Of a DNA stretch of 33,831 nt, positions 11,159-33,831 are shown piece by piece; position 1 is the stretch's first letter; the number at the start of each line of letters is the position of its first letter. The stretch spans positions 1 through 33,831 of the forward strand of contig JAJPIQ010000075.1 in the NCBI GenBank assembly GCA_021324685.1. Direction: 5' to 3'. A program made the translations under genes and the position numbers. Under the pieces are notes generated by a model that saw nothing but the letters and a program-made list of their open reading frames with translations, was not told where the DNA came from and ran no database searches. The DNA is from Bacteroidota bacterium (GTDB taxonomy: Bacteria > Bacteroidota > Ignavibacteria > Palsa-1295).

Positions 11159-13438
11159 TCAGCCTACATGCAGATACGACTCAGCATCGCGGTACTGGCG
11201 CAGGAATTCTTCCCTCGTCGGCCGATTTTCGGGCCGTGCGAGCCGAGTATCCTGTTCCAAAAGTTCTCCGGCATCTTTGAGCGCCTGCTCCACAAGCGCA
11301 ATATCGGCAGTGAGATCGGCAATATTGAGCCGCACTTTCCCGGATTGTTTCAACCCCAGAATCTCGCCGGTACCACGGAATTTCATGTCGGCTTCGGCAA
11401 TTTTAAAACCGTCCGAAGTCGCGACGAGCGTCCGAAGCCGTTCGAGCGCAAGCGACGACTGCTCGATCTCATCGCTCGTCTCATTTTCCGCTTCTCCGGC
11501 CAGCTTTTCGCTCGCTACGAGGACGCAGGCGGAGTCCGCGCTCCCGCGGCCGACCCGACCCCGAAGCTGATGCAGTTGCGCCAGCCCGAATCGTTCAGCG
11601 TGTTCGATGATCATCACCGTTGCGTTCGGCACATCGACTCCGACCTCGATGACCGTTGTCGCAACAAGCACATCGAACTCCTTCTGTCGAAACCGGCGCA
11701 TCACGTCCTGTTTTTCCTGTGAGGACAATTTGCCATGCACCAGGCCGACGCGGAATTTTTTAAACGCTTTGGAGCGCAGATCTTCATAGGCTTTTTCTGC
11801 GGCTTCGGAATCGACTTTCTGCGATTTTTCACGTAGCGGATAAACAATAAAGACCTGCTCGCCGCGTTCTTCGATCCTTCGTATTGCCGCTTTGTAGATC
11901 TGAGCATGGTCGTGCTCGAAAAAGAGCATGGTTTTGATCGGTTTTCTTCCGGACGGAAGTTCACGAATGGTGCTTACTTCCATGTCGCCATAAATGGTGA
12001 GCGCCAGCGTACGCGGAATGGGCGTAGCCGTCATCAGCAAAACGTCCGGCGTAACGATTTCGGGGGTGTGCAGTGTGACACGGAACATATCGCGCTCGAA
12101 TTCTTCGACGTTTGCCGCCTCTGCGCTTTTTTCGATCAACGCTTTGCGCTGTGCCACGCCGAACCGGTGCTGTTCATCGGTCACGACGAACCCTAACCGT
12201 TGAAATCGGACGTTTTTCTGGAACAGGGCATGCGTCCCGACGGCAATGTGCGTTTCCCCGGAAGCAACGGAAGCGAGAATCGCCGCGCGCTCGCGTTTCG
12301 ATTGTCCGCCGATGAGCAGCGCTGTTTTTAATGGCGTATCCTTTAAAATTCTCGAGATCGTATCGAAATGCTGCACCGCCAGCACTTCCGTCGGCACCAT
12401 GAAGGCACATTGGTAACCATTTTCAATGGCCGCCAGCATGGCAAGCAATGCGACGATCGTTTTTCCGCTGCCGACATCGCCCTGCAAAAGCCGGTTCATG
12501 GGATAGGACTGCCCTTCCTTCGACATGTCGTACAGGATTTCGCGAAGGGCACGCCGTTGATCGTCGGTAAGCCTAAAGGGCAACGAAAGGAGCACTCGTT
12601 CGGCGATACCCTGAGCTTCGGAACTCTTCTCTTCGAGCACGGCCATCATCCGGGAAACGTCGTATTTCACGACCCCTTTCACCGCCCGCCGCATGCGGAT
12701 CCGCTCGACGGCAAGGCGCAATTCCAGAAAAAAGATCTCTTCGTATTTTAATCGCCGCTTTGCCTCTTCGAGCCGTTCCGGCGTTTTCGGGCGATGGACC
12801 TCCTCGATCGATTCCGTTCGCGGCATCAGCCGATGGCGTTTTAAGAGGGCGGGCGGAAGGATCTCGGTAAAAAGGTCTAAGCCTTTTCCGGCATCGATCG
12901 ATTTTTGGACCAGCGAACGAAATTCCTTATCTCGAATCCCGGCTTTTCGAAGTGAGGTCGGCAGATAGTAGAGCGGCAGCATCTGGCCTTGTACAAATTC
13001 TTCGGGACTCGCCAAATGCTCGATAAACGGCGGCTGAACGATCTGTAAGACGCTCTTATACTCGCCGGCATATCCGGCAATTAAAAATTCGTCCCCGGTT
13101 TGGAATTGTTTTGCACGCCATTCCGGATAATCGAAAAAGACGAGCTGCAAGAGGCCGCCGGACTGATCCTGCAACATCACGGCCGCGCGAGAACGCCGGC
13201 GGCCGGGAATGACGAGCGAAGAAATTACGCTGCCGCGCACGCTCACCGGTTCGCGTAAATGCTTTCGAAGTTGGTTTAATGGAATGAGCGCACGCGCGTC
13301 CAGATAGCGGCCGGGAATATGGAAGGCGAGGTCCTCGACATATTCAAAACCGGCCTGTGCAAGCGCCTCCGCTTTTTTCGGCGAAAGCCCTTTTAATCGA
13401 CGCAGAGAGTTCGGTGGCGGAACGGGGTCAACGAGCAC
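11159..13438 (-). CDS. recG: ATP-dependent DNA helicase RecG
   Basis: RecG remodels stalled replication forks and branch-migrates Holliday junctions. The 759-aa product has the N-terminal wedge/OB region, starting LRRLKGLSPKKAEALAQAGF and containing VRGSVISS. The SF2 helicase motifs follow: Walker A GDVGSGKT at about 317-324, DEQH box at about 420, LLMTATPIPRTL, and the RecG-specific VIEVGVDVPNATVM plus QLHQLRGRVGRG. The C-terminal LKQSGKVRLNIADL is also typical. The start is GTG at 13438; the N terminus aligns with other RecG proteins there, and no ATG is nearby. This start lies inside the first copy of a 31-bp tandem duplication shared with the rnr upstream region. It probably leads an operon with the two genes that follow. 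Confidence 0.97.
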   Translation of the reverse strand: MLVDPVPPPNSLRRLKGLSPKKAEALAQAGFEYVEDLAFHIPGRYLDARALIPLNQLRKHLREPVSVRGSVISSLVIPGRRRSRAAVMLQDQSGGLLQLVFFDYPEWRAKQFQTGDEFLIAGYAGEYKSVLQIVQPPFIEHLASPEEFVQGQMLPLYYLPTSLRKAGIRDKEFRSLVQKSIDAGKGLDLFTEILPPALLKRHRLMPRTESIEEVHRPKTPERLEEAKRRLKYEEIFFLELRLAVERIRMRRAVKGVVKYDVSRMMAVLEEKSSEAQGIAERVLLSLPFRLTDDQRRALREILYDMSKEGQSYPMNRLLQGDVGSGKTIVALLAMLAAIENGYQCAFMVPTEVLAVQHFDTISRILKDTPLKTALLIGGQSKRERAAILASVASGETHIAVGTHALFQKNVRFQRLGFVVTDEQHRFGVAQRKALIEKSAEAANVEEFERDMFRVTLHTPEIVTPDVLLMTATPIPRTLALTIYGDMEVSTIRELPSGRKPIKTMLFFEHDHAQIYKAAIRRIEERGEQVFIVYPLREKSQKVDSEAAEKAYEDLRSKAFKKFRVGLVHGKLSSQEKQDVMRRFRQKEFDVLVATTVIEVGVDVPNATVMIIEHAERFGLAQLHQLRGRVGRGSADSACVLVASEKLAGEAENETSDEIEQSSLALERLRTLVATSDGFKIAEADMKFRGTGEILGLKQSGKVRLNIADLTADIALVEQALKDAGELLEQDTRLARPENRPTREEFLRQYRDAESYLHVG

Positions 13439-13491
13439 GTGGAATTAAGATTCGCGTCTTAACGAGCACGTAGAATTAAGATTCGCGTCTT
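13430..13491. repeat. 31-bp tandem duplication in the recG-rnr divergent region
   Basis: Bases 13430-13460 and 13461-13491 are the same 31-bp sequence with a single difference (G at 13441, A at 13472). Each copy carries the inverted repeat TAAGA-TTCGCG-TCTTA; in the first copy the arms extend to TTAAGA / TCTTAA (13445-13462). The palindrome centres are therefore 31 bp apart, close to three helical turns. The first copy contains the recG GTG start; the second copy ends 28 bp before the rnr ATG. Confidence 0.95.
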
Positions 13492-13519
13492 ATGGTTCGA
13501 TGGTGGAACGCTCTCACGT

Positions 13520-22563: not shown

Positions 22564-22905
22564 ATGGCAATTCTGCTCACGATCCTTTTACTCGTCATTT
22601 CTAACACGTTCATGACGTTTGCATGGTATGGCCATTTGAAGTTTACGTCGAAACCGCTCTGGCTGGTCGTACTCGCAAGCTGGGGCCTGGCGTTCTTCGA
22701 ATATTGCTTTCAGGTTCCCGCCAACCGATGGGGCTTCGAACATGCGATTGGTCCGGCCAAGCTTAAGATCCTCGCCGAAGCGATCGCGCTCACGGTCTTT
22801 ATCGTATTTGCCCGGTATTATTTCGGCGAGACGCTGAAATGGAACTACGTCGTGAGTTTCGGGCTGATGTTCGCGGCAGTCTTTTTTGCTTTTGCATTTC
22901 AATGA
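22564..22905 (+). CDS. DMT-family small membrane protein, DUF486
   Basis: The 113-aa product has four predicted transmembrane helices and the DUF486 hallmarks FMTFAWYGHLK near residue 20, SWGLAFFEYCFQVPANRWG near 40-55 and ETLKWNYVVSF near the C terminus. DUF486 belongs to the drug/metabolite transporter superfamily and is of single-repeat EmrE-like size, but no substrate is established. The ATG at 22564 fits the family N terminus. The stop overlaps the ATG of the next gene (ATGA at 22902-22905), indicating coupled translation. Confidence 0.92.
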   Translation: MAILLTILLLVISNTFMTFAWYGHLKFTSKPLWLVVLASWGLAFFEYCFQVPANRWGFEHAIGPAKLKILAEAIALTVFIVFARYYFGETLKWNYVVSFGLMFAAVFFAFAFQ

Positions 22906-23504
22906 TCCTCACCCTCCATCCCATGCGACGCTCCCTCCTCCTGTTTGCGATCGTGCTCCCGCTCGTCGCCTTCGGTCAACTCGTGGTCTTCGGTCAACTC
23001 GTGGCCTTTGGCCAGACGAAAAAAGGGAAGCACAAGCCCGCGAAAGCACACGTCGAGGCACCGGCCGCTCCCGAACAACCGCTTGAAATTTTAGGAATTC
23101 GCCCCGGAATTACGCTCGACAGTATAAAGCATATCATGATGGACGCCGGAGCAGGCATGCGTGAAGTCCGTGAAGATACGTTGTCCCACTCGTTTACCGA
23201 TAACCCGGTCCACGTCTTTGTCGTCGATTCGATTATCTGCCGGCTCACGTATATGCGCATGGCGTTTGTGTTCGACGGTTCGGACCGGCTTCGGCGGCTG
23301 ACCATTACGCCAAGGGAAAGTTCCATCAGTGTCGGCGCGACCGACGATATCGAAAACGTCCTCCTGCTCTATTTCGGCCAAAAATGGGGTAAACCTGAAC
23401 TCGATCTCGAACCTCCGCTCCCCGTTTTTAAGTGGAAGACGGGAAATATCGAGATGCGCGGCTTTATCCGGCGTGGCTATCCGATGTGGGTATTGGAAGG
23501 CTGA
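22902..23504 (+). CDS. Small secreted protein of unknown function with repeated signal-peptide end
   Basis: The 200-aa product (from the ATG at 22902, which overlaps the DUF486 stop by 4 nt; another ATG at 22923 is possible) has an N-terminal signal peptide. Its end is repeated three times as LVAFGQ / LVVFGQ / LVAFGQ. A Lys-rich stretch (TKKGKHKPAKAH) follows. The globular part, about residues 50-200, contains ILGIRPGITLDSIKHIM, FVVDSIICRLTYMRMAFVFDGSDRL and LLLYFGQKWGKP. That layout recalls small periplasmic proteins in which a short helix follows a strand, but I do not recognise the family. It is probably periplasmic or surface-exposed. Confidence 0.75.
   Translation: MILTLHPMRRSLLLFAIVLPLVAFGQLVVFGQLVAFGQTKKGKHKPAKAHVEAPAAPEQPLEILGIRPGITLDSIKHIMMDAGAGMREVREDTLSHSFTDNPVHVFVVDSIICRLTYMRMAFVFDGSDRLRRLTITPRESSISVGATDDIENVLLLYFGQKWGKPELDLEPPLPVFKWKTGNIEMRGFIRRGYPMWVLEG
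22962..23015 (+). repeat. Three 18-bp tandem repeats in the signal-peptide coding region
   Basis: Units at 22962-22979, 22980-22997 and 22998-23015 are variants of CTCGTGGTCTTCGGTCAA. Each encodes Leu-Val-(Ala/Val)-Phe-Gly-Gln. The unit length is a multiple of three, so copy changes keep the frame. Units one and two differ at two or three bases; the third is more diverged. Confidence 0.92.
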
Positions 23505-26235: not shown

Positions 26236-27726
26236 TTGCGCCTCCCTTCGACTCGCGATATCATAGCGGATAAGAGCTGGCTCCGCTCGTCCCAAGACGG
26301 CCGGTACCTCCTTATGCGTGGCGTCTGCTTCGGCCCTTCGGCGAAACTGCCGCCGCACCTTCCCTTTCGCACCGCCGAGGACTGGGCCCGCTACGAGACC
26401 TACGTCGATCTCCTCTTTGCCTGTGGGTTCCGGGTGCTGCGGCTGCCATTCTTCTGGTCCGCGTTCGAGCCGCGCTGCAATCCCGACCGACCCGAATACA
26501 ACGAGCAATACCTTCGCGATTTTTTCGATTACGTCCGGCGGTTTTCCGACAAAGGGTTTTTGCTCCTCATCGATATTCATCAGGACCTCCTCGGCAAGGC
26601 CTTTGGCGGTAACGGCATGCCGGAGTGGGTCCACGCCGAGGGGACGCGTTCGCACAGTTTTTTAAAGAACACGCCGCTCTGGGGCGCCAACTACGAGTTC
26701 AATCGCGATCTTCGAAAAACATTCACCGATTTCTGGAATAACGACCTCACCAACCGTACCACGACGCCCCCGCTCGAGCATTTTAAAGTACGCGACCGCT
26801 TCCTCGACATGGTCGGGCGCGTGGCCGAAGAAGCCGCGCTTCACGAGCGCGTCCTCGGTATCGAGATTTTCAACGAACCGCATCCGGCCCGTATCAACGA
26901 CCGCCGTTTCGAGGAAGAGATCCTTCCCGGGTTTTATTCCGAAGCGATTGCCCGCATTCGCAGGCATTCGAGCGCCCTCTTCGCCTTCGTCTCTCCGCAG
27001 AGCGACTGGAACGTAAATTTGCGCGAGAATAAGAACTACGAATCGTACCTGGCGCTCGACCCCGCGACGGGACCCACCGATGCGGGCCGAGTCGCGTTCG
27101 CCTATCATTACTACGATTCGCTGCTCACGGCCATGGGCGGGCTCCTCTTTCACGACGCCAAGCGCGAAGAGTATCTCGCGGCCCAGACCCTGGGAACGAA
27201 ACGCGCGCGCGAAAAAGGGATGGTCCCCTTCCTCACCGAATTTGGCACGCGCCAAAGCTGGCCGCGCACCATCGTCCGGCGTCACATGGACTGGCAGTTC
27301 GAAGCCGTCGAATACGCGCTCGTCCACTCGACCTACTGGAACGTCAATCTCTACAACACGCAGGAACTTCGCGACGGCTTTATGCGCGAGGACTTTTCGC
27401 TCATTGGGTTCGATCACCGGCTCCGCAATCTCGATATCGCCGTCCGACCGTACGTCCTCGCGGCGAGCGCGAAACCGGTCCATATGCATTTTAACGCGCG
27501 CACGAAAGAGTTCGAGTTAGTGCTGCGCGGGAACCCCGTTCCCAGCCCGACGACACTCTACCTTCCGCACCTCCGCGAGCACTCGATGCAGCCCGTGCAT
27601 TACGAGCGGGGCTTCGAGATCGACTACAACGGCTCGCTCGATTATCGCGCGGAAGGAAATGACGTCGAACTCACGCTCGATCCGAGCGTGGACGTCCATG
27701 AAATACGGATCACTCCCCGTTCCTGA
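26236..27726 (+). CDS. GH5-family glycoside hydrolase, endoglycoceramidase-like
   Basis: The 496-aa product is a clan GH-A hydrolase. GFRVLRLPFFWSAFEP marks the first barrel strands. LLIDIHQDLLGKAFGGNGMPEW closely recalls the DMHQD..FGGDG..DW pattern of endoglycoceramidases. The acid/base Glu214 lies in IFNEPHP and the nucleophile Glu335 in FLTEFGT. A C-terminal beta-sandwich-like part (about 410-496) also fits that subfamily. Endoglycoceramidases cut glycan from glycosphingolipids, but the substrate here is inference. No signal peptide is visible; the start is TTG at 26236, preceded by GAAGG at a good distance. It is thus predicted to be cytoplasmic, unlike typical secreted members. Its end overlaps the next gene on the opposite strand by 17 bp. 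Confidence 0.85.
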   Translation: MRLPSTRDIIADKSWLRSSQDGRYLLMRGVCFGPSAKLPPHLPFRTAEDWARYETYVDLLFACGFRVLRLPFFWSAFEPRCNPDRPEYNEQYLRDFFDYVRRFSDKGFLLLIDIHQDLLGKAFGGNGMPEWVHAEGTRSHSFLKNTPLWGANYEFNRDLRKTFTDFWNNDLTNRTTTPPLEHFKVRDRFLDMVGRVAEEAALHERVLGIEIFNEPHPARINDRRFEEEILPGFYSEAIARIRRHSSALFAFVSPQSDWNVNLRENKNYESYLALDPATGPTDAGRVAFAYHYYDSLLTAMGGLLFHDAKREEYLAAQTLGTKRAREKGMVPFLTEFGTRQSWPRTIVRRHMDWQFEAVEYALVHSTYWNVNLYNTQELRDGFMREDFSLIGFDHRLRNLDIAVRPYVLAASAKPVHMHFNARTKEFELVLRGNPVPSPTTLYLPHLREHSMQPVHYERGFEIDYNGSLDYRAEGNDVELTLDPSVDVHEIRITPRS

Positions 27727-28696
27727 GCTTTGCGGCATTCGATTCCGAGAGCGTCACGACGGAACGAACGTTCAGCAGGTCGGTAAAGGGCGTCGCGGTC
27801 GAGACCGTTACTTTTGCCGGGATCTTCATGGCGAGCGTCCGTTTGACGACGCGCCCCGAAAACAGATCGAGGAACGTCGTGTCCGTGCCGGAGATCGGTC
27901 CCGAGGTCGAGGTCGTAACATTCGTGACGGAGTTCGTTTGCGTTCCCTGGAACGATCCCGTATCGGTTGCGACGATAACGGCAAGGTAGGTCGTATCGAT
28001 CAGGCGCGCAAGGCTATAGGTGCGGGAGACATCGTAAATATATTCGCCCGTCGTCGTGCCGATATTGACGGTATCGTGCACAAAAACCGTATCGACGCTG
28101 TGCTCGGACCAGGTGTTCCCATAGGTCACCGGCTGAACGGGCAGCGGGATCAGCATGCGCGGCGGTTCGAAAAAATAGGCGTTCGTCTGCGCTTCCGCAT
28201 TCAGGAGTTTCAGCGAATCGACGATCTCTTTATGCAGTTCGTCGCCTTTCATATTGTACGTCAGCCGCGTAATACGGTTGACGGCGAGGTTCTCTTCCAG
28301 CCAGAGCGAATCGCCGGCAAGCGTATGGCCGCCGACATCGAACTTGGTGAACGATTCTTCGAAGGTCCAGAGCCCTTTTTTATAATCGATCGAAAGATTG
28401 TGGAATGCGAGCTCGGCTTCGCTCGCAAGATCGCCCGAAAGTTCGTCGCGGTCCGTGCGGACCGATTGGTCGATGCGCGTATGCACATCGTAAACAAGCG
28501 TTCCCGCCTGCGGTTTGTAGCGGAGCGTAAGGATGTCCGGCTTGATCTCGGGCGTGTGCGGCGCCGGAGGTTCCTCTTTTACCGGCGCGGGTTTATGGCG
28601 GCGCTGCGCCGCACACGGCTTCACGCCGATTCCGTTCACGGCCACGAAAGCGACCGTGACGAAGATCACCGTTCGGCACACGTTCTGAAAGAGCAT
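27710..28696 (-). CDS. Secreted protein of unknown function in an operon with the T9SS cargo
   Basis: The product has 328 residues from the ATG at 28696, which lies one base after the stop of the upstream cargo gene (TAA-C-ATG). A longer ORF reaches into that gene but is not needed, because this ATG gives a good signal peptide (hydrophobic TVIFVTVAFVAV, cleavage near AAQ). After a Pro-rich linker (PAPVKEEPPAPHTPEIKP) the rest looks all-beta: LTLRYKPQAGTLVYDVHTRIDQSV, TWSEHSVDTVFVHDTVNI and ARLIDTTYLAVIVATDTGSF. It resembles large secreted beta-rich families of unknown function. No catalytic motif is seen. Position suggests it is exported together with, or helps, the neighbouring BNR-repeat cargo. 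Confidence 0.75.
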   Translation of the reverse strand: MLFQNVCRTVIFVTVAFVAVNGIGVKPCAAQRRHKPAPVKEEPPAPHTPEIKPDILTLRYKPQAGTLVYDVHTRIDQSVRTDRDELSGDLASEAELAFHNLSIDYKKGLWTFEESFTKFDVGGHTLAGDSLWLEENLAVNRITRLTYNMKGDELHKEIVDSLKLLNAEAQTNAYFFEPPRMLIPLPVQPVTYGNTWSEHSVDTVFVHDTVNIGTTTGEYIYDVSRTYSLARLIDTTYLAVIVATDTGSFQGTQTNSVTNVTTSTSGPISGTDTTFLDLFSGRVVKRTLAMKIPAKVTVSTATPFTDLLNVRSVVTLSESNAAKLRNGE

Positions 28697-28697
28697 G

Positions 28698-31600
28698 TTA
28701 TCGGGAAACGAGCGCAACCCGGGCTTCACCGAGCGTCCGGCCCGATGCGCTCCGAAGTTCCGCAATATACGCGCCGGGTTCCAGAGCACCGCGATCGATC
28801 GTGTACTGCCCGGCTCCGCTCTCGCGGACGGGCAGGGTAAATTCCTTCCCACTCGAAACTTCGATCATGCGGCATGCGGAAGCCGGTTCCGTGCCGGCGG
28901 TCTCGATGCGGAAGGAAGTTCCGGCGACCGGATTGGGGTAGATGAAAAGCGGCGGAACGGTGGATGCCGAGGCCCTCGTGACCGAGGACGGCACCGCCTG
29001 GAGCCCGCCGATGTCCACCGCATAGAGCGAGCGCCCGTGCGTCGAGGCAATGAGCATGTTCTTGTAGATCTTGAGATCGCTCACGATCACGTGCGGCATT
29101 CCGGTGCCGAGCGCGAACCACTGCGCCCCGCCGTTCGTCGTCGCATAGACGCCCACATCGGTCCCGACAATGAGCGCCTGGTCCTTGAGGGCCGGGTCGC
29201 CATGTTCGGCGAGCGTATCGATCGCGAGCGCGCTCGCCGCGGCCGCAGGTAAGTTCCCGGAAATATTCACCCACTTCTTCCCGCCGTTGGTCGTCTTCAG
29301 CACGTGCGCCGCGCCGGACGTGCTCATGGTCGCGCAGAACGCCGTCATCGAATCGCTCCGGTCTGGAACGACCTGCGAGATCGTCGCCACCGGAAGCCCT
29401 GCTCCGTGCGCGCCGATCCAGTGCGGCGGCGTGGTATCGCTCGTCGTGGGGTCCACCGTCGTCCGCCAGAGCACGCCGCTCGTCCCATAGCCTCCGGCCC
29501 AGAGCATCGGACGCCCGTTCGCATCGCGGGGACCCAGCGCCACGGTCTCGATATCGCCGTAATACCACTGGGAATCTTTCGTTACGTTCCCCTCGATGGG
29601 CGGCGACCACGTCCGCCAGGTGATGTTCTCCAGATCGTTCCAATCGAGCGTTGCGCGATAGACGTGGCAGCGGCCGGTATAAAGTTCCGCGGGGTCTTGC
29701 TCGTCCAGCGCGATGGGCGCGTTCCAGGCCACGGCTTCCTCGGTATCCGTAAGCGCGTGCGGGCCATAGAGCAGGCGGTAGGTGAGCGTGTGCCAGCGCG
29801 GCCGCGAGTCGTGCGTCGAGTCCTTCATTGCGAGCGGAAGCGGAAGGAGCGAGTCCAGCGTGTTCCGTGCGAAGATCACCCCATACTGCAGCGAGGTAAT
29901 GAGCTTGTTCGTGTCCGTAGGATGCGAGACGGCCGCTTCGCCATCGCCATGGTTGATCCACGCGAAGGACGTGTCGAGAAGATTCCCGACCGTGCCGTTG
30001 TCCTGCGTGCCGCCAAAGACTTTGAGGTCGCTCGCCGAGATCGTGGCCGGCGTATGCGCCATGCCGGCACGCCACGGTTCCACCGAATAGAACATCGTGA
30101 TCGGCAGGCCGGTCATTTGCTTCCAGGTCGCCCCAAAATCGTAGGTCGAAAAGAGGCCGCCATCGGAAACGACGAGCAGGTCGCTGCCGGCGAAGGCCAG
30201 CCCGTGCTGGTCCGAATGCTGCTCGCGATTCCCCTTCACATAATACTCGCTGTACGAATCGGTGATGTCCTTCCACGTGGCCCCCAGGTCGGTGGAACGA
30301 AATACATCGATGCCCCCGAGATAAATATCGGGATCGATCGCCGGTCCGACCGGCGCGGCCGTAAGATAAAAATTATATCCGCCCTGCGCGTTCGTGATGT
30401 TGGCGCTGTCTTTTCCCTGCACGCCGCCCATCGGAATTTTTATCGTCGAGTCGAGGATTTTTGTCCAGGTCACACCCTGATCGGCGGAGCGATAGAGGCC
30501 TTCAAAATTTTCGTCGAGCAGGTCGTGGGTTACCACATTGGTATCGGTACGAATATATCCTGCGAAAAGGTAATCGCGGGCCGGAGGCAGCCCTCCCGTC
30601 ATCGTCCAGAGCAGCGCGCCGCGGCCAAGAACGTTTTCTTTTTCGCCATTGGGCAAGCCGCTCGAAGCCATGGTATCGATCCGCTGCCAGGTATGGCCGG
30701 TATCGGTGCTACGATAAATTCCCGTATGCGGTCCCGAGGGCCCGCCGGGATTGAAATTCGGGCCGATGGTAATCGAGTGGTCCACCGCGAAGGCGACGAT
30801 CTGCGCCGCGTTCAGTGGATTCATCGCCAGGTCGATAAAGCCGACACAATCGCTTGCGCTCGGTTTAACAAAAAGAGATCGGGTCCATGTCGCGCCGCCG
30901 TCCGTCGAGCGGAAGATGCCTTTGTTCGTATCGGTAAGGGAGTTCGGCCCGGGAACGGCGATGAAAAGCTGTTTATCGTTTCGTGGATCGATCGCGACCT
31001 TCGCGATATATTGCGCCGCGGCAAAGCCAATATAGTTCCAGGTGCCGCCGCCGTCGGTCGATTTCCAGAGTCCGTCTCCGGGATAGGAGTCGGAGCTGCC
31101 GTTGCACTCGCCGAGACCGATATAGATCGTCTGTGGCTGGGCGGGATCGATCGTGATACAGCCGATCGAAAGCGAGCCGAACGTATCGGTCGTGCAGTGC
31201 CAGCTCGCGCCGTGGTCCGTCGTTTTCCAGAGTCCTCCGGCCGCCGCCCCGATATAAAACGTGTTTGTATCGGTGGGATCGGTCGCGATGGCGCTTACGC
31301 GGCCGTCGATGGAATAGGGACCGATCGGCTCCCACACAAAACTCGATAGCGTGCCTTCTTTCCCGATCCGTTCTGAAAGCACGGGCATCCGTGCGGCCTG
31401 GGCGAGCGCGTTCGGGTAATAGGCGGGGTCGATCGTCTCCCCCGGCCAGGCCCGCCGGCGCGAGAACCAATCGCTCCGCTCCTCGCCGTCATGCCCGGGC
31501 GGCGGAGCATGCTCCCTGATGCTCGTTTGGATACGGGCCGGCTTCGATTCCAGCGTCCGCGTTTTGGAGTGGTTTCGCGGCCGTGCGCGATGATGGCTCC

Positions 31601-31874
31601 TGCGATGATGAACGCGGGAATGAGCCGTTTTTTGTGAATGCGCCCTTTCTTGTGAATGCGCCCTTTCTTGTGAATGCGCCCTTTCTTGTGAATGCGCCCT
31701 TTCTTGTGAATGCGCCCTTTCTTGTGAATGTGCCGTTTTTTGCAAATGCGCCTTTTTTGGAGCGGCCGCTTCGGTCTGCGAAAATGCGGGGGCGACCGCA
31801 AAAGTAAGCCCGAAAGCCATGACGAGCATGCACAAGAGCCAGCGAAAGGAGACGGTCCGGAAGCGTGTTATCAT
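28698..31874 (-). CDS. BNR/sortilin-type beta-propeller protein with T9SS sorting tail
   Basis: The 1058-aa product is a predicted T9SS cargo. It has a signal peptide (cleavage about AFS|QT, residue 32). A repeat linker follows at residues 42-89 (AHSQER units), then a His/Arg-rich stretch (VHHRRSHHRARPRNHSKTR). A long propeller region, about 190-960, has many Asp-box/BNR motifs such as STDGGGTWNY, STDGGATWTR, STDTGHTWQR, SADQGVTWTK, STDLGATWKD and TTNGGKKWVN. This architecture is like the sortilin/Vps10 or glycosyl-hydrolase BNR proteins of Bacteroidota. The last 85 residues (from about 974) start FIYPNPVAGTSFRIE and end GEARVALVSR, matching the type A sorting domain. Enzymatic activity is not evident. 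The PorU/PorV pair in this window could process and export it. Confidence 0.88.
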   Translation of the reverse strand: MITRFRTVSFRWLLCMLVMAFGLTFAVAPAFSQTEAAAPKKAHLQKTAHSQERAHSQERAHSQERAHSQERAHSQERAHSQKTAHSRVHHRRSHHRARPRNHSKTRTLESKPARIQTSIREHAPPPGHDGEERSDWFSRRRAWPGETIDPAYYPNALAQAARMPVLSERIGKEGTLSSFVWEPIGPYSIDGRVSAIATDPTDTNTFYIGAAAGGLWKTTDHGASWHCTTDTFGSLSIGCITIDPAQPQTIYIGLGECNGSSDSYPGDGLWKSTDGGGTWNYIGFAAAQYIAKVAIDPRNDKQLFIAVPGPNSLTDTNKGIFRSTDGGATWTRSLFVKPSASDCVGFIDLAMNPLNAAQIVAFAVDHSITIGPNFNPGGPSGPHTGIYRSTDTGHTWQRIDTMASSGLPNGEKENVLGRGALLWTMTGGLPPARDYLFAGYIRTDTNVVTHDLLDENFEGLYRSADQGVTWTKILDSTIKIPMGGVQGKDSANITNAQGGYNFYLTAAPVGPAIDPDIYLGGIDVFRSTDLGATWKDITDSYSEYYVKGNREQHSDQHGLAFAGSDLLVVSDGGLFSTYDFGATWKQMTGLPITMFYSVEPWRAGMAHTPATISASDLKVFGGTQDNGTVGNLLDTSFAWINHGDGEAAVSHPTDTNKLITSLQYGVIFARNTLDSLLPLPLAMKDSTHDSRPRWHTLTYRLLYGPHALTDTEEAVAWNAPIALDEQDPAELYTGRCHVYRATLDWNDLENITWRTWSPPIEGNVTKDSQWYYGDIETVALGPRDANGRPMLWAGGYGTSGVLWRTTVDPTTSDTTPPHWIGAHGAGLPVATISQVVPDRSDSMTAFCATMSTSGAAHVLKTTNGGKKWVNISGNLPAAAASALAIDTLAEHGDPALKDQALIVGTDVGVYATTNGGAQWFALGTGMPHVIVSDLKIYKNMLIASTHGRSLYAVDIGGLQAVPSSVTRASASTVPPLFIYPNPVAGTSFRIETAGTEPASACRMIEVSSGKEFTLPVRESGAGQYTIDRGALEPGAYIAELRSASGRTLGEARVALVSR
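31618..31761 (-). repeat. Eight 18-bp tandem repeats coding a His/Arg/Lys-rich linker
   Basis: Five exact copies of GAATGCGCCCTTTCTTGT (plus-strand reading) lie at 31636-31725. They are flanked by one variant copy on the left (31618-31635) and two on the right (31726-31743, 31744-31761). Read on the coding (minus) strand they give AHSQER five times, bordered by AHLQKT and AHSQKT. All six frames across the array are stop-free, so it also creates spurious ORFs such as repeated VNAPFL on the plus strand. Confidence 0.97.
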
Positions 31875-31976: not shown

Positions 31977-33482
31977 ATGCGCCTCGTTCTTCTCGTTTTC
32001 GCCGCGCTTGTTTGTGGAGCGATGTCCGGGTTCGCCCAGAGCGGCTTTTTGGAACTACCGCTCACGATCAATATTCCGGACCAGAGCGAGATCCTTCCCG
32101 TCATCTCCGCCGACAACAAAACGCTCTATTTCGGACGCACGCGGATGGGGATCGACTCCGGGCTCGTCTTCGATATCTGGCGGACCCATATCGCCGGGGA
32201 CTCGAGCTATTCGGCGCCGGAATTCGTCGGCGGGAACCTATCGAGTTCCTACGGCATCCTCGTCACCTCTGTTTCGCCGGACAACAACACGCTCTATCTT
32301 GCCGGCAAGCTGCACCGCGATTCCCCGCCCGACGAACGGCTCTACGTCGCCCATAAGCTGGCTTCGGGATGGTCGATCCCGGAACCGATAAAAATTCCCG
32401 ACCTCCAGCCGCGGGCGCTCTATACCGATTACAGCTTCGGCCCCGACCAGCGGACGCTCGTCATGGCCGTCGATCGCGATTCGACCCTCGGCGACCGCGA
32501 TCTCTACGTCAGTTTTTTCGATAGCCGCTCCGGGAACTGGACGCCGCCCCTCTGGCTCGGACCCGACATCAATAGCAATGCGGCGGAGATGACGCCCTTC
32601 CTCGCGAGCGATAACAAGACGCTCTATTTTTCCAGCGAGCGCCCGGGCGGTATCGGTTCGCTCGACGTCTATCGTTCCGTTCGGCAGGACGACACCTGGA
32701 AACACTGGTCGAAACCGGAGGACCTCGGACCCGGCGTCAACCGGCCGGGCCGCACCTCCTATTACACCGAAGACGCGAGCGGGAACTATGCATATTTCTC
32801 CTGGCGGCCTTCCGAGCATGAGGCGAGCGCGATCTACCGTATTAAAGTCAAACATACGCACGCCATCGCGCTGGTCCACGGCACGGTGACCGACGCCAAC
32901 GGCAAACCGCTCTCCGCGAAGATCGAATATGGGTCGCTGAACGATACCGCTTCCTCCGGCAGTGCGCGTTCCGATCCGACGACCGGCGAATACCAGTTGA
33001 CGCTGCCGGCCGGGGTCGCCTATGCGATCCGTGCCGAGCGCGATGGCTATTTCCCGGCGAGCGATCATCTCGACCTTACGGCCCTGAAGAATTTCGAACC
33101 GTTCGAGCTCGACCTTCGCCTGAACCGCATCGAGACCGGCGCGCGGGTGGAACTAAAAAATGTCTTTTTCGAGACCGACCGGGCAGAACTCCTGCCCGCC
33201 TCCTTCCCCGAACTCGACCGGGTGGTCGGGCTCCTCGCCGAACATCCCGAATTCAAACTCGAGATCGCGGGACATACCGATAGCACCGGAAGCGAAGCGC
33301 ACAATCTCGCCCTTTCAAAGGCCCGCGCCGAAGCCGTGGCACAATACCTCATACAAAAAGGTACCGCGAGCGCGCGCCTGACCGCCGTGGGCTACGGTTC
33401 CACCAAACCCGTCGCAACGAACGCGACCGAAGCCGGCCGCGCCCAAAACCGAAGAGTCGAGTTTATCGTCGTCGCCAAGTGA
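31977..33482 (+). CDS. PorE-like OmpA-family lipidless envelope protein: propeller, regulatory-like and OmpA domains
   Basis: The 501-aa product has a signal peptide cut at about GFA|QS (residue 20) with no lipobox Cys at the cleavage site. A PD40-like beta-propeller spans about 30-295 (repeated DNKTLYF, DNNTLYL, DQRTLVM and SSERPGG). A carboxypeptidase-regulatory-like domain lies at about 298-385 (LVHGTVTDANGKPLSAKIEY), and an OmpA C-terminal domain at about 390-501. The OmpA part keeps the peptidoglycan-binding elements HTDSTG (about 432) and NLALSKARAEAV, with the final NRRVEFIVV. The same order, with an extra N-terminal TPR region, is found in PorE of the T9SS; the TPR is absent here. It is divergent from the T9SS cargo gene, with 102 bp between starts. 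Confidence 0.85.
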   Translation: MRLVLLVFAALVCGAMSGFAQSGFLELPLTINIPDQSEILPVISADNKTLYFGRTRMGIDSGLVFDIWRTHIAGDSSYSAPEFVGGNLSSSYGILVTSVSPDNNTLYLAGKLHRDSPPDERLYVAHKLASGWSIPEPIKIPDLQPRALYTDYSFGPDQRTLVMAVDRDSTLGDRDLYVSFFDSRSGNWTPPLWLGPDINSNAAEMTPFLASDNKTLYFSSERPGGIGSLDVYRSVRQDDTWKHWSKPEDLGPGVNRPGRTSYYTEDASGNYAYFSWRPSEHEASAIYRIKVKHTHAIALVHGTVTDANGKPLSAKIEYGSLNDTASSGSARSDPTTGEYQLTLPAGVAYAIRAERDGYFPASDHLDLTALKNFEPFELDLRLNRIETGARVELKNVFFETDRAELLPASFPELDRVVGLLAEHPEFKLEIAGHTDSTGSEAHNLALSKARAEAVAQYLIQKGTASARLTAVGYGSTKPVATNATEAGRAQNRRVEFIVVAK

Positions 33483-33575
33483 GGCTCATTGCCTGACGTC
33501 GGAATGACGCCTGAAACGTGTGAACTTTAGTCCGCCGCCCTGGCAGATCGCTTCCATCCACACGAAAACCACTTT

Positions 33576-33682
33576 TGTCATCCCCGCGGAGGCGGGGATC
33601 CAGTGGTCCAATGATAGGTACGGAAAGATTTCAGATACCGCCTGGATTCCCGTTCCCGGTCGGGTCGAGGACAGGCTACTCG
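33576..33682. repeat. Interspersed palindromic repeat, copy 1
   Basis: This 107-bp unit begins TGTCATCCCCGCGGAGGCGG and ends GGACAGGCTACTCG. It holds a small hairpin (CCCCGC / GCGGGG, 4-nt loop) and a distant inverted pair (GGATCCAG / CTGGATTCC-like). It belongs to the widespread class of GTCAT(T/C)CCCGC...GGCGGG(A/G)ATCCAG intergenic elements found in many bacteria, similar in form to dRS3/REP-like repeats. No transposase is present, so movement would be non-autonomous. Confidence 0.88.
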
Positions 33683-33724
33683 CGACATATTATGCTGAGG
33701 GTGCATTCTAAACACAACCTTTCC

Positions 33725-33831
33725 TGTCATCCCCGCGGAGGCGGGGATCCAGTGGTCCAATGATGGGTACGGAGAAATTTCAGATCTCGCCTGGATTCCC
33801 GTTCCCAATCGGGTCGAGGACAGGCTACTCG
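33725..33831. repeat. Interspersed palindromic repeat, copy 2 (reaches window end)
   Basis: This is a same-orientation copy of the unit at 33576-33682. It has the same 107-bp length and differs at about eight positions, for example ATAGG/ATGGG, AAAGAT/AGAAAT and CGGTC/CAATC. It ends exactly at the window edge, so the element or an array of it may continue to the right. Confidence 0.88.

What the first reader, a model, noticed from the sequence alone, without database searches (positions are those of the whole stretch)
31618..31761. Slippage-prone 18-bp array encodes a cationic His-rich linker right after the signal peptide of a T9SS cargo
Five perfect and three variant 18-bp units encode (AHSQER)n, followed by a His/Arg-rich stretch, between the signal peptide and the propeller domain. 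Perfect copies imply recent expansion. Because 18 is a multiple of three, copy number can vary without breaking the gene, so linker length on the cell surface could be tuned. All six frames are open. The composition suggests binding to anionic polymer or metal.
Basis: partly seen in the sequence, partly recalled or inferred. Interest (0 to 1): 0.6.

Follow-up and report, generated by a model that had tools for sequence, protein, structure and literature searches.

The report
Repeat-lengthened linker in secreted propeller protein
A short DNA repeat has recently multiplied inside a secreted protein of an uncultured Kapaibacteria-type bacterium, doubling the length of a floppy, positively charged tail that all 13 known relatives carry in other sequence; the repeat itself is an ordinary stretchable spacer, while the conserved charged tail is the more interesting part.

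Summary
The array is real: 7.7 copies of 18 bp at 31618-31756, with a 99-bp perfect core, far above chance. It lies in frame in a 1058-aa protein (28698-31874, minus strand) made of signal peptide, linker, GH74-like double beta-propeller and a T9SS-type C-terminal domain. The frames are not all open (one plus frame has TGA in every unit), and the unit AHSQER is charge-neutral, so the array is not what makes the linker cationic. Each of the 12 other family genomes has one orthologue and none has this array. All 13 carry a signal-peptide-proximal linker of unrelated sequence but the same character: net +7 to +14 and 30-43% K/R/H. In 59 other exported proteins of this genome the first 50 mature residues average net -0.9, maximum +3. 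Removing the array leaves 43 aa with net +9, the family's usual size and charge. So the array is a species-specific spacer of 48 near-neutral residues dropped into a conserved basic, probably disordered tether. Basic charge, not histidine, is conserved, which argues against metal binding. Copy-number variation could not be tested. New member of a known kind; modest interest.

The parts
28698..31874 (-). host gene: 1058-aa exported protein (signal peptide, basic linker, double beta-propeller, T9SS-type C-terminal domain)
   Evidence: one orthologue in each of 13 family genomes
31779..31874 (-). signal peptide, residues 1-32; predicted cleavage AFS|Q, with Gln as first mature residue
   Evidence: by eye; Q at the same place in 8 of 13 orthologues
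31506..31778 (-). basic linker, residues 33-123 (91 aa, net +12)
   Evidence: pLDDT below 50 over residues 20-151
31608..31751 (-). the array in codon register, residues 42-89: AHLQKT (AHSQER)5 AHSQKT AHSRVH
31632..31730 (-). perfect period-18 core, 99 bp
31506..31607 (-). non-repeat His/Arg-rich part of the linker, residues 90-123 (net +8), which carries most of the charge
31380..31505 (-). conserved motif after the linker (PPPGHDGEERSDWFSRRRAWPGETIDPAYYPNALAQAARMP), residues 124-165
   Evidence: alignment of 13 orthologues, conservation begins at P124
29004..31385 (-). GH74-like double beta-propeller, residues about 164-957
   Evidence: VIA-align Z 28.9, rmsd 3.9 over 617 residues to 6p2k_B; Foldseek
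28701..28952 (-). C-terminal T9SS-type sorting domain, residues about 975-1058
   Evidence: TIGR04183 17.7 bits, 9 of 13 orthologues match; beta-rich, pLDDT about 80
31977..33482 (+). divergently transcribed PD40 / CarboxypepD_reg / OmpA protein resembling PorE; conserved neighbour
   Evidence: adjacent in 9 of 13 family genomes, present in 12 of 13

Best explanation
The array is an in-frame intragenic minisatellite. A short stretch of an already existing, length-tolerant, probably disordered linker was duplicated in tandem in this species, presumably by replication slippage or unequal recombination (inferred). The result is 48 near-neutral residues (AHSQER units) inside a basic tether that joins the signal-peptide cleavage site to a surface double beta-propeller. 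The functional core, conserved in composition but not in sequence across the family, is the basic tether (shown by comparison). It most likely acts by non-specific electrostatics on anionic envelope material such as LPS, capsule or exopolymer, or on the acidic propeller or the acidic PorE-like partner (inferred). The repeat lengthens the tether from about 43 to 91 residues without adding much charge. Copy number could drift without frameshift, but nothing shows that it does or that length is selected.
For: Array and perfect core, well above shuffles and other stretches of the genome. Unique in the genome and genus. All 12 orthologues lack it but have a basic linker at the same place: 39-64 aa, net +7 to +14, KRH 0.30-0.43, against net mean -0.9, sd 1.7, max +3 and KRH max 0.18 in 59 signal-peptide proteins of the same genome. 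Own linker minus array is 43 aa, net +9, against a median of 47 aa in the others. Class-level homologues outside the family mostly go from signal peptide straight to the WFYQRAYP motif with no such linker. One congener (G002) has its own imperfect 15-bp x 3.5 array in the same linker, so repeats have probably arisen there more than once. Linker predicted unstructured. The edges of the array are degenerate and the centre perfect, as expected of slippage arrays.
Against: No strain, read or expression data. Only one genome per species, so slippage itself is inferred. Signal-peptide cleavage sites were assigned by eye. Low pLDDT on a shallow 13-sequence alignment is weak evidence of disorder. The orthologues are not phylogenetically independent. 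The first 50 mature residues of this protein are only +3, because the array dilutes the charge. The 15-bp array in G002 is imperfect (TRF score 62).
Confidence: 0.72

Rival explanations
1. The array is a selected length dial: copy-number change by slippage tunes how far the propeller stands from the cell surface, as a contingency locus would.
For: Unit length is a multiple of three; 99-bp perfect core; linker twice the family length.
Against: No variation data; no orthologue keeps an array of this kind, and the other 12 linkers stay within 39-64 aa, which suggests length is not usually extended.
Confidence: 0.15
2. The array is neutral: a slippage by-product in a permissive linker with no effect on function, and the copy number is a transient state. 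(This is compatible with the origin given in the best explanation; it differs only in denying the spacer any effect.)
For: Species-specific, near-neutral charge, inserted in a region without sequence conservation.
Against: Cannot be separated from a weakly useful spacer with the data held; the reading frame and absence of stops are kept.
Confidence: 0.5
3. The basic, His-rich linker is a metal-binding or polyanion-binding module of which AHSQER is the active repeat.
For: 9 His in the 48-aa array and 14 in the linker.
Against: His count in the other 12 linkers is 1-9; the unit has no net charge; the array is absent from all orthologues.
Confidence: 0.08
4. The linker is a propeptide cut at basic residues during or after T9SS export, so the array never reaches the surface in the mature protein.
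For: Basic-residue-rich and predicted unstructured; some Porphyromonas T9SS cargos have N-terminal propeptides cut at basic residues (own knowledge).
Against: No conserved cleavage motif in the alignment; no protein data.
Confidence: 0.15
5. The copy number is an assembly artefact (collapse or false expansion).
For: The genome is in 89 contigs and looks metagenome-derived; a 99-bp perfect core is near or above common k-mer sizes, and tandem repeats longer than k are known to be misassembled (PMC6868369).
Against: The whole array is 139 bp with degenerate edges, shorter than a 150-250 bp read, and in frame; array existence is therefore likely even if the count is off.
Confidence: 0.1
6. The array is a DNA or RNA element (regulator-binding iterons or a structured leader) rather than a protein feature.
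For: It lies about 220 bp from the divergent gene start.
Against: Absent from the congeners although the divergent pair is conserved; RNA fold z-score only -1.1.
Confidence: 0.03

Closest known systems
Intragenic in-frame minisatellites in linkers or stalks of bacterial surface proteins (e.g. the Ser-Asp repeats of staphylococcal adhesins, PMC3324548, abstract seen in search)
   Same: Unit length a multiple of three, near-identical copies, located in a non-globular spacer of a surface protein.
   Different: Placed at the N-terminus next to the signal peptide of a T9SS cargo; mixed AHSQER unit; no population variation data.
T9SS type A cargo proteins (TIGR04183 / PF18962)
   Same: Sec signal peptide, folded domain, C-terminal beta domain with (Y/F)PNP and SGxY motifs; genome has 150 such hits.
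   Different: Own domain below the curated cut-off; long basic linker right after the signal peptide, not seen in 59 other exported proteins of the genome.
GH74 xyloglucanases / sortilin-like BNR propellers
   Same: Double beta-propeller fold, Z 28.9 to 6p2k_B; Sortilin-Vps10 Pfam hit E 9.5e-20.
   Different: At the position that is Asp in 2cn2 and Ala in 2cn3 the 13 orthologues have an invariant Ala211, so no GH74 catalysis is expected.
PorE (T9SS peptidoglycan-binding component; compared with the neighbour gene)
   Same: PD40 propeller, CarboxypepD_reg and OmpA domains in the same order.
   Different: 501 aa against a 648-position model and 187 bits against a cut-off of 600; another gene in the genome (C45) scores slightly higher.

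Membership tests
In-frame coding minisatellite (VNTR candidate) | Tandem units of 10 bp or more, near-identical, above chance | tested here: met
   18 bp x 7.7, score 215, shuffle maximum 66
In-frame coding minisatellite (VNTR candidate) | Unit a multiple of three in a continuous reading frame | tested here: met
In-frame coding minisatellite (VNTR candidate) | Copy number varies between strains | not testable with these tools
   One genome per species; no reads; the nearest species (about 67% aa identity) lack the array
T9SS type A cargo | Sec signal peptide | tested here: met
   N-terminus by inspection, Gln at +1 in 8 of 13 orthologues; no dedicated predictor was available
T9SS type A cargo | C-terminal sorting domain matching TIGR04183 / PF18962 | tested here: inconclusive
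   Own 17.7 bits against 23 and 17.4 against 27, below cut-off; 9 of 13 orthologues match, best E 3e-12
T9SS type A cargo | Genome encodes many T9SS cargos | tested here: met
   150 TIGR04183 hits at E <= 0.001; core translocon genes were not searched
GH74 xyloglucanase | Double beta-propeller fold | tested here: met
   Z 28.9, rmsd 3.9, 617 residues; blade count not checked
GH74 xyloglucanase | Catalytic Asp at the ADIGG position | tested here: not met
   Invariant Ala211 aligns with the residue that is Asp in 2cn2 and Ala in 2cn3; that this Asp is catalytic is own knowledge
PorE (neighbour gene) | NF052230 score above curated cut-off | tested here: not met
   187 bits against 600

The most novel reading that the evidence does not exclude
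A Kapaibacteria family has fixed a strongly basic, sequence-free N-terminal tether on one T9SS-exported propeller protein, usually encoded head-to-head with a PorE-like OmpA-domain protein. The tether is a conserved electrostatic surface-attachment or partner-docking element whose reach is adjustable by in-frame repeats.
Probability: 0.2. Interest if true: 0.5.

Novelty: new member of a known kind. Interest (0 to 1): 0.27.

Why it matters
Coding repeats in linkers of surface proteins are familiar; on its own this one adds an example from an uncultured lineage. The useful part is the comparison. Charge and rough length of the linker are kept while its sequence is free to change, and the repeat contributes spacing, not charge. 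The 59 other exported proteins sampled here avoid positive charge just after the signal peptide, so a family-wide net +7 to +14 tether is an exception that can be tested, in a T9SS cargo usually paired with a PorE-like gene.

Tried and rejected
Six-open-frames claim: rejected. Other copies of the array in the genome or genus: none; the one extra AHSQER-like match at C69 is at the level of the reversed-pattern control. RNA structure of the array: z -1.1, not notable. Metal-binding reading: weakened by the variable His content. GH74 enzyme reading: the residue aligned with the Asp is an invariant Ala. Linker depending on adjacency to the OmpA gene: rejected, because genomes where the gene lies elsewhere (G001, G002, G006) keep the basic linker. 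Literature search for T9SS cargo with His-rich or basic N-terminal linkers found nothing relevant, and for Kapabacteria T9SS one unrelated paper. Strain-level copy number could not be studied. The genome-contig scan gave four orthologues that are the same as ones found by the genome search, plus one weak unrelated hit.

Full report
OBSERVATION. The array is present at the stated place. Tandem Repeats Finder reports 31618-31756, period 18, 7.7 copies, score 215, by far the strongest tandem repeat of the window. A perfect period-18 run spans 99 bp, 31632-31730. On the minus strand it is read in frame as AHLQKT, five AHSQER, AHSQKT, AHSRVH, residues 42-89 of a 1058-aa protein encoded at 28698-31874. 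The largest score in 30 Markov shuffles of the window was 66; in 391 kb of other stretches from the same genome, chosen around T9SS genes, the strongest array scored 175. The array is unique in the genome. The statement that all six frames are open is wrong: one plus-strand frame has TGA in every unit and another has a single stop. Nearly half of 18-mers drawn from the window would be open in six frames if repeated, so openness would mean little.

GENOME AND PROTEIN. The window is contig 89 of a 3.47-Mb, 98% complete genome. The named relatives in the collection are metagenome-assembled genomes labelled Bacteroidetes, Ignavibacteriae or Candidatus Kapaibacterium; placing the host in Kapaibacteria is an inference from these. 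The protein has a signal peptide, a linker, a conserved PPPGHDGEE...WF.RRAWPN.IDP motif, a propeller region and a C-terminal beta domain. A 13-sequence AlphaFold model (mean pLDDT 63) gives pLDDT below 50 over residues 20-151, GH74-like double propellers over about 164-957 (best Z 28.9, rmsd 3.9, 617 residues aligned to 6p2k_B) and a beta-rich C-terminal domain. Where 2cn2 has Asp and 2cn3 Ala, the orthologues have an invariant Ala211, so GH74 catalysis is not expected (that this Asp is catalytic is from general knowledge). The C-terminal domain scores 17.7 bits against TIGR04183 (cut-off 23), but 9 of 13 orthologues match that model, best E 3e-12, in a genome with 150 TIGR04183 hits. T9SS cargo status is therefore likely, not proven. 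Eight of 13 proteins have Gln at the predicted +1 position, as in the Q-rule described for Bacteroidetes; a high Q-value is also reported for Ignavibacterium album (PMC5837995).

COMPARISON. Exactly one close orthologue exists in each of the 12 other family genomes (45-68% identity). None carries the array; a two-unit pattern with three mismatches allowed is found only in the own genome within the genus. All 13 proteins nevertheless have a linker at the same place. In the 12 others it is 39-64 aa long with net charge +7 to +14, 30-43% K/R/H, and no conserved column before P124 apart from the start Met. Among 59 signal-peptide-like proteins of the same genome, the first 50 mature residues have mean net charge -0.9 (sd 1.7, maximum +3) and at most 18% K/R/H. 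The rank test against these controls gives p about 8e-9, but the orthologues share ancestry, so it is indicative only. More distant homologues of the class mostly run from the signal peptide straight into the WFYQRAYP motif without such a linker. The basic linker is thus a family-level feature of this orthologous group.

WHAT THE ARRAY ADDS. AHSQER has one Arg and one Glu, so it is neutral apart from His. The 48-aa array is net +3; removing it leaves 43 aa with net +9, close to the median length of 47 and the charge of the other 12 linkers. The array therefore doubles tether length and adds little charge. His counts in the other linkers run from 1 to 9, so histidine is not what is conserved. 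One congener, G002, shows a separate imperfect 15-bp x 3.5 repeat in the same linker (HAPSA/HAPST), which suggests repeated birth of in-frame repeats in a permissive segment.

CONTEXT. The divergent neighbour at 31977-33482 combines PD40, CarboxypepD_reg and OmpA domains and resembles PorE, though far below that model's cut-off. It is adjacent in 9 of 13 family genomes and present in 12 of 13. This conserved head-to-head pair is the best hint of a functional partner. Partner and propeller part are both acidic (net -2 to -14 and -4 to -36), so an electrostatic contact with the basic tether is possible but unproven. Genomes in which the pair is split keep the basic linker.

MECHANISM. Shown: an in-frame array, unique to this species among those held, inside a family-wide basic linker. 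Inferred: origin by slippage or unequal recombination; disorder; electrostatic attachment; spacer effect. Not tested: copy-number variation, retention of the linker after export, any binding. The perfect core is about as long as common assembly k-mers, so the exact copy number should be treated as provisional (PMC6868369).

VERDICT. An ordinary in-frame minisatellite in a linker, embedded in a mildly interesting conserved basic tether. Interest 0.27.

Noticed in passing
22962-23008 (ORF 22839-23504, +): A second 18-bp tandem repeat (2.6 copies) triplicates LVAFGQ at the end of a signal peptide, i.e. the predicted cleavage site, and is followed by a Lys/His-rich stretch (TKKGKHKPAKAH).
   Followed up: partly
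31977-33482 (+): PorE-like PD40-CRD-OmpA gene, divergent from the cargo and conserved next to it in 9 of 13 family genomes.
   Followed up: yes
27710-28852 (-): Gene directly downstream of the cargo, likely starting near 28696; conserved beside it in all six congeners and in one other family genome; no Pfam or NCBIfam match.
   Followed up: partly
33567-33831 (+): Two 116-bp direct repeats (91% identical) at the contig end belong to a dispersed repeat with about eight matches in the genome, which probably explains the contig break.
   Followed up: partly
13430-13492: Two 31-bp direct repeats at 96% identity between divergent genes.
   Followed up: no
L064:2319-2370: Independent imperfect 15-bp array (HAPSA/HAPST) in the linker of the G002 orthologue.
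   Followed up: partly
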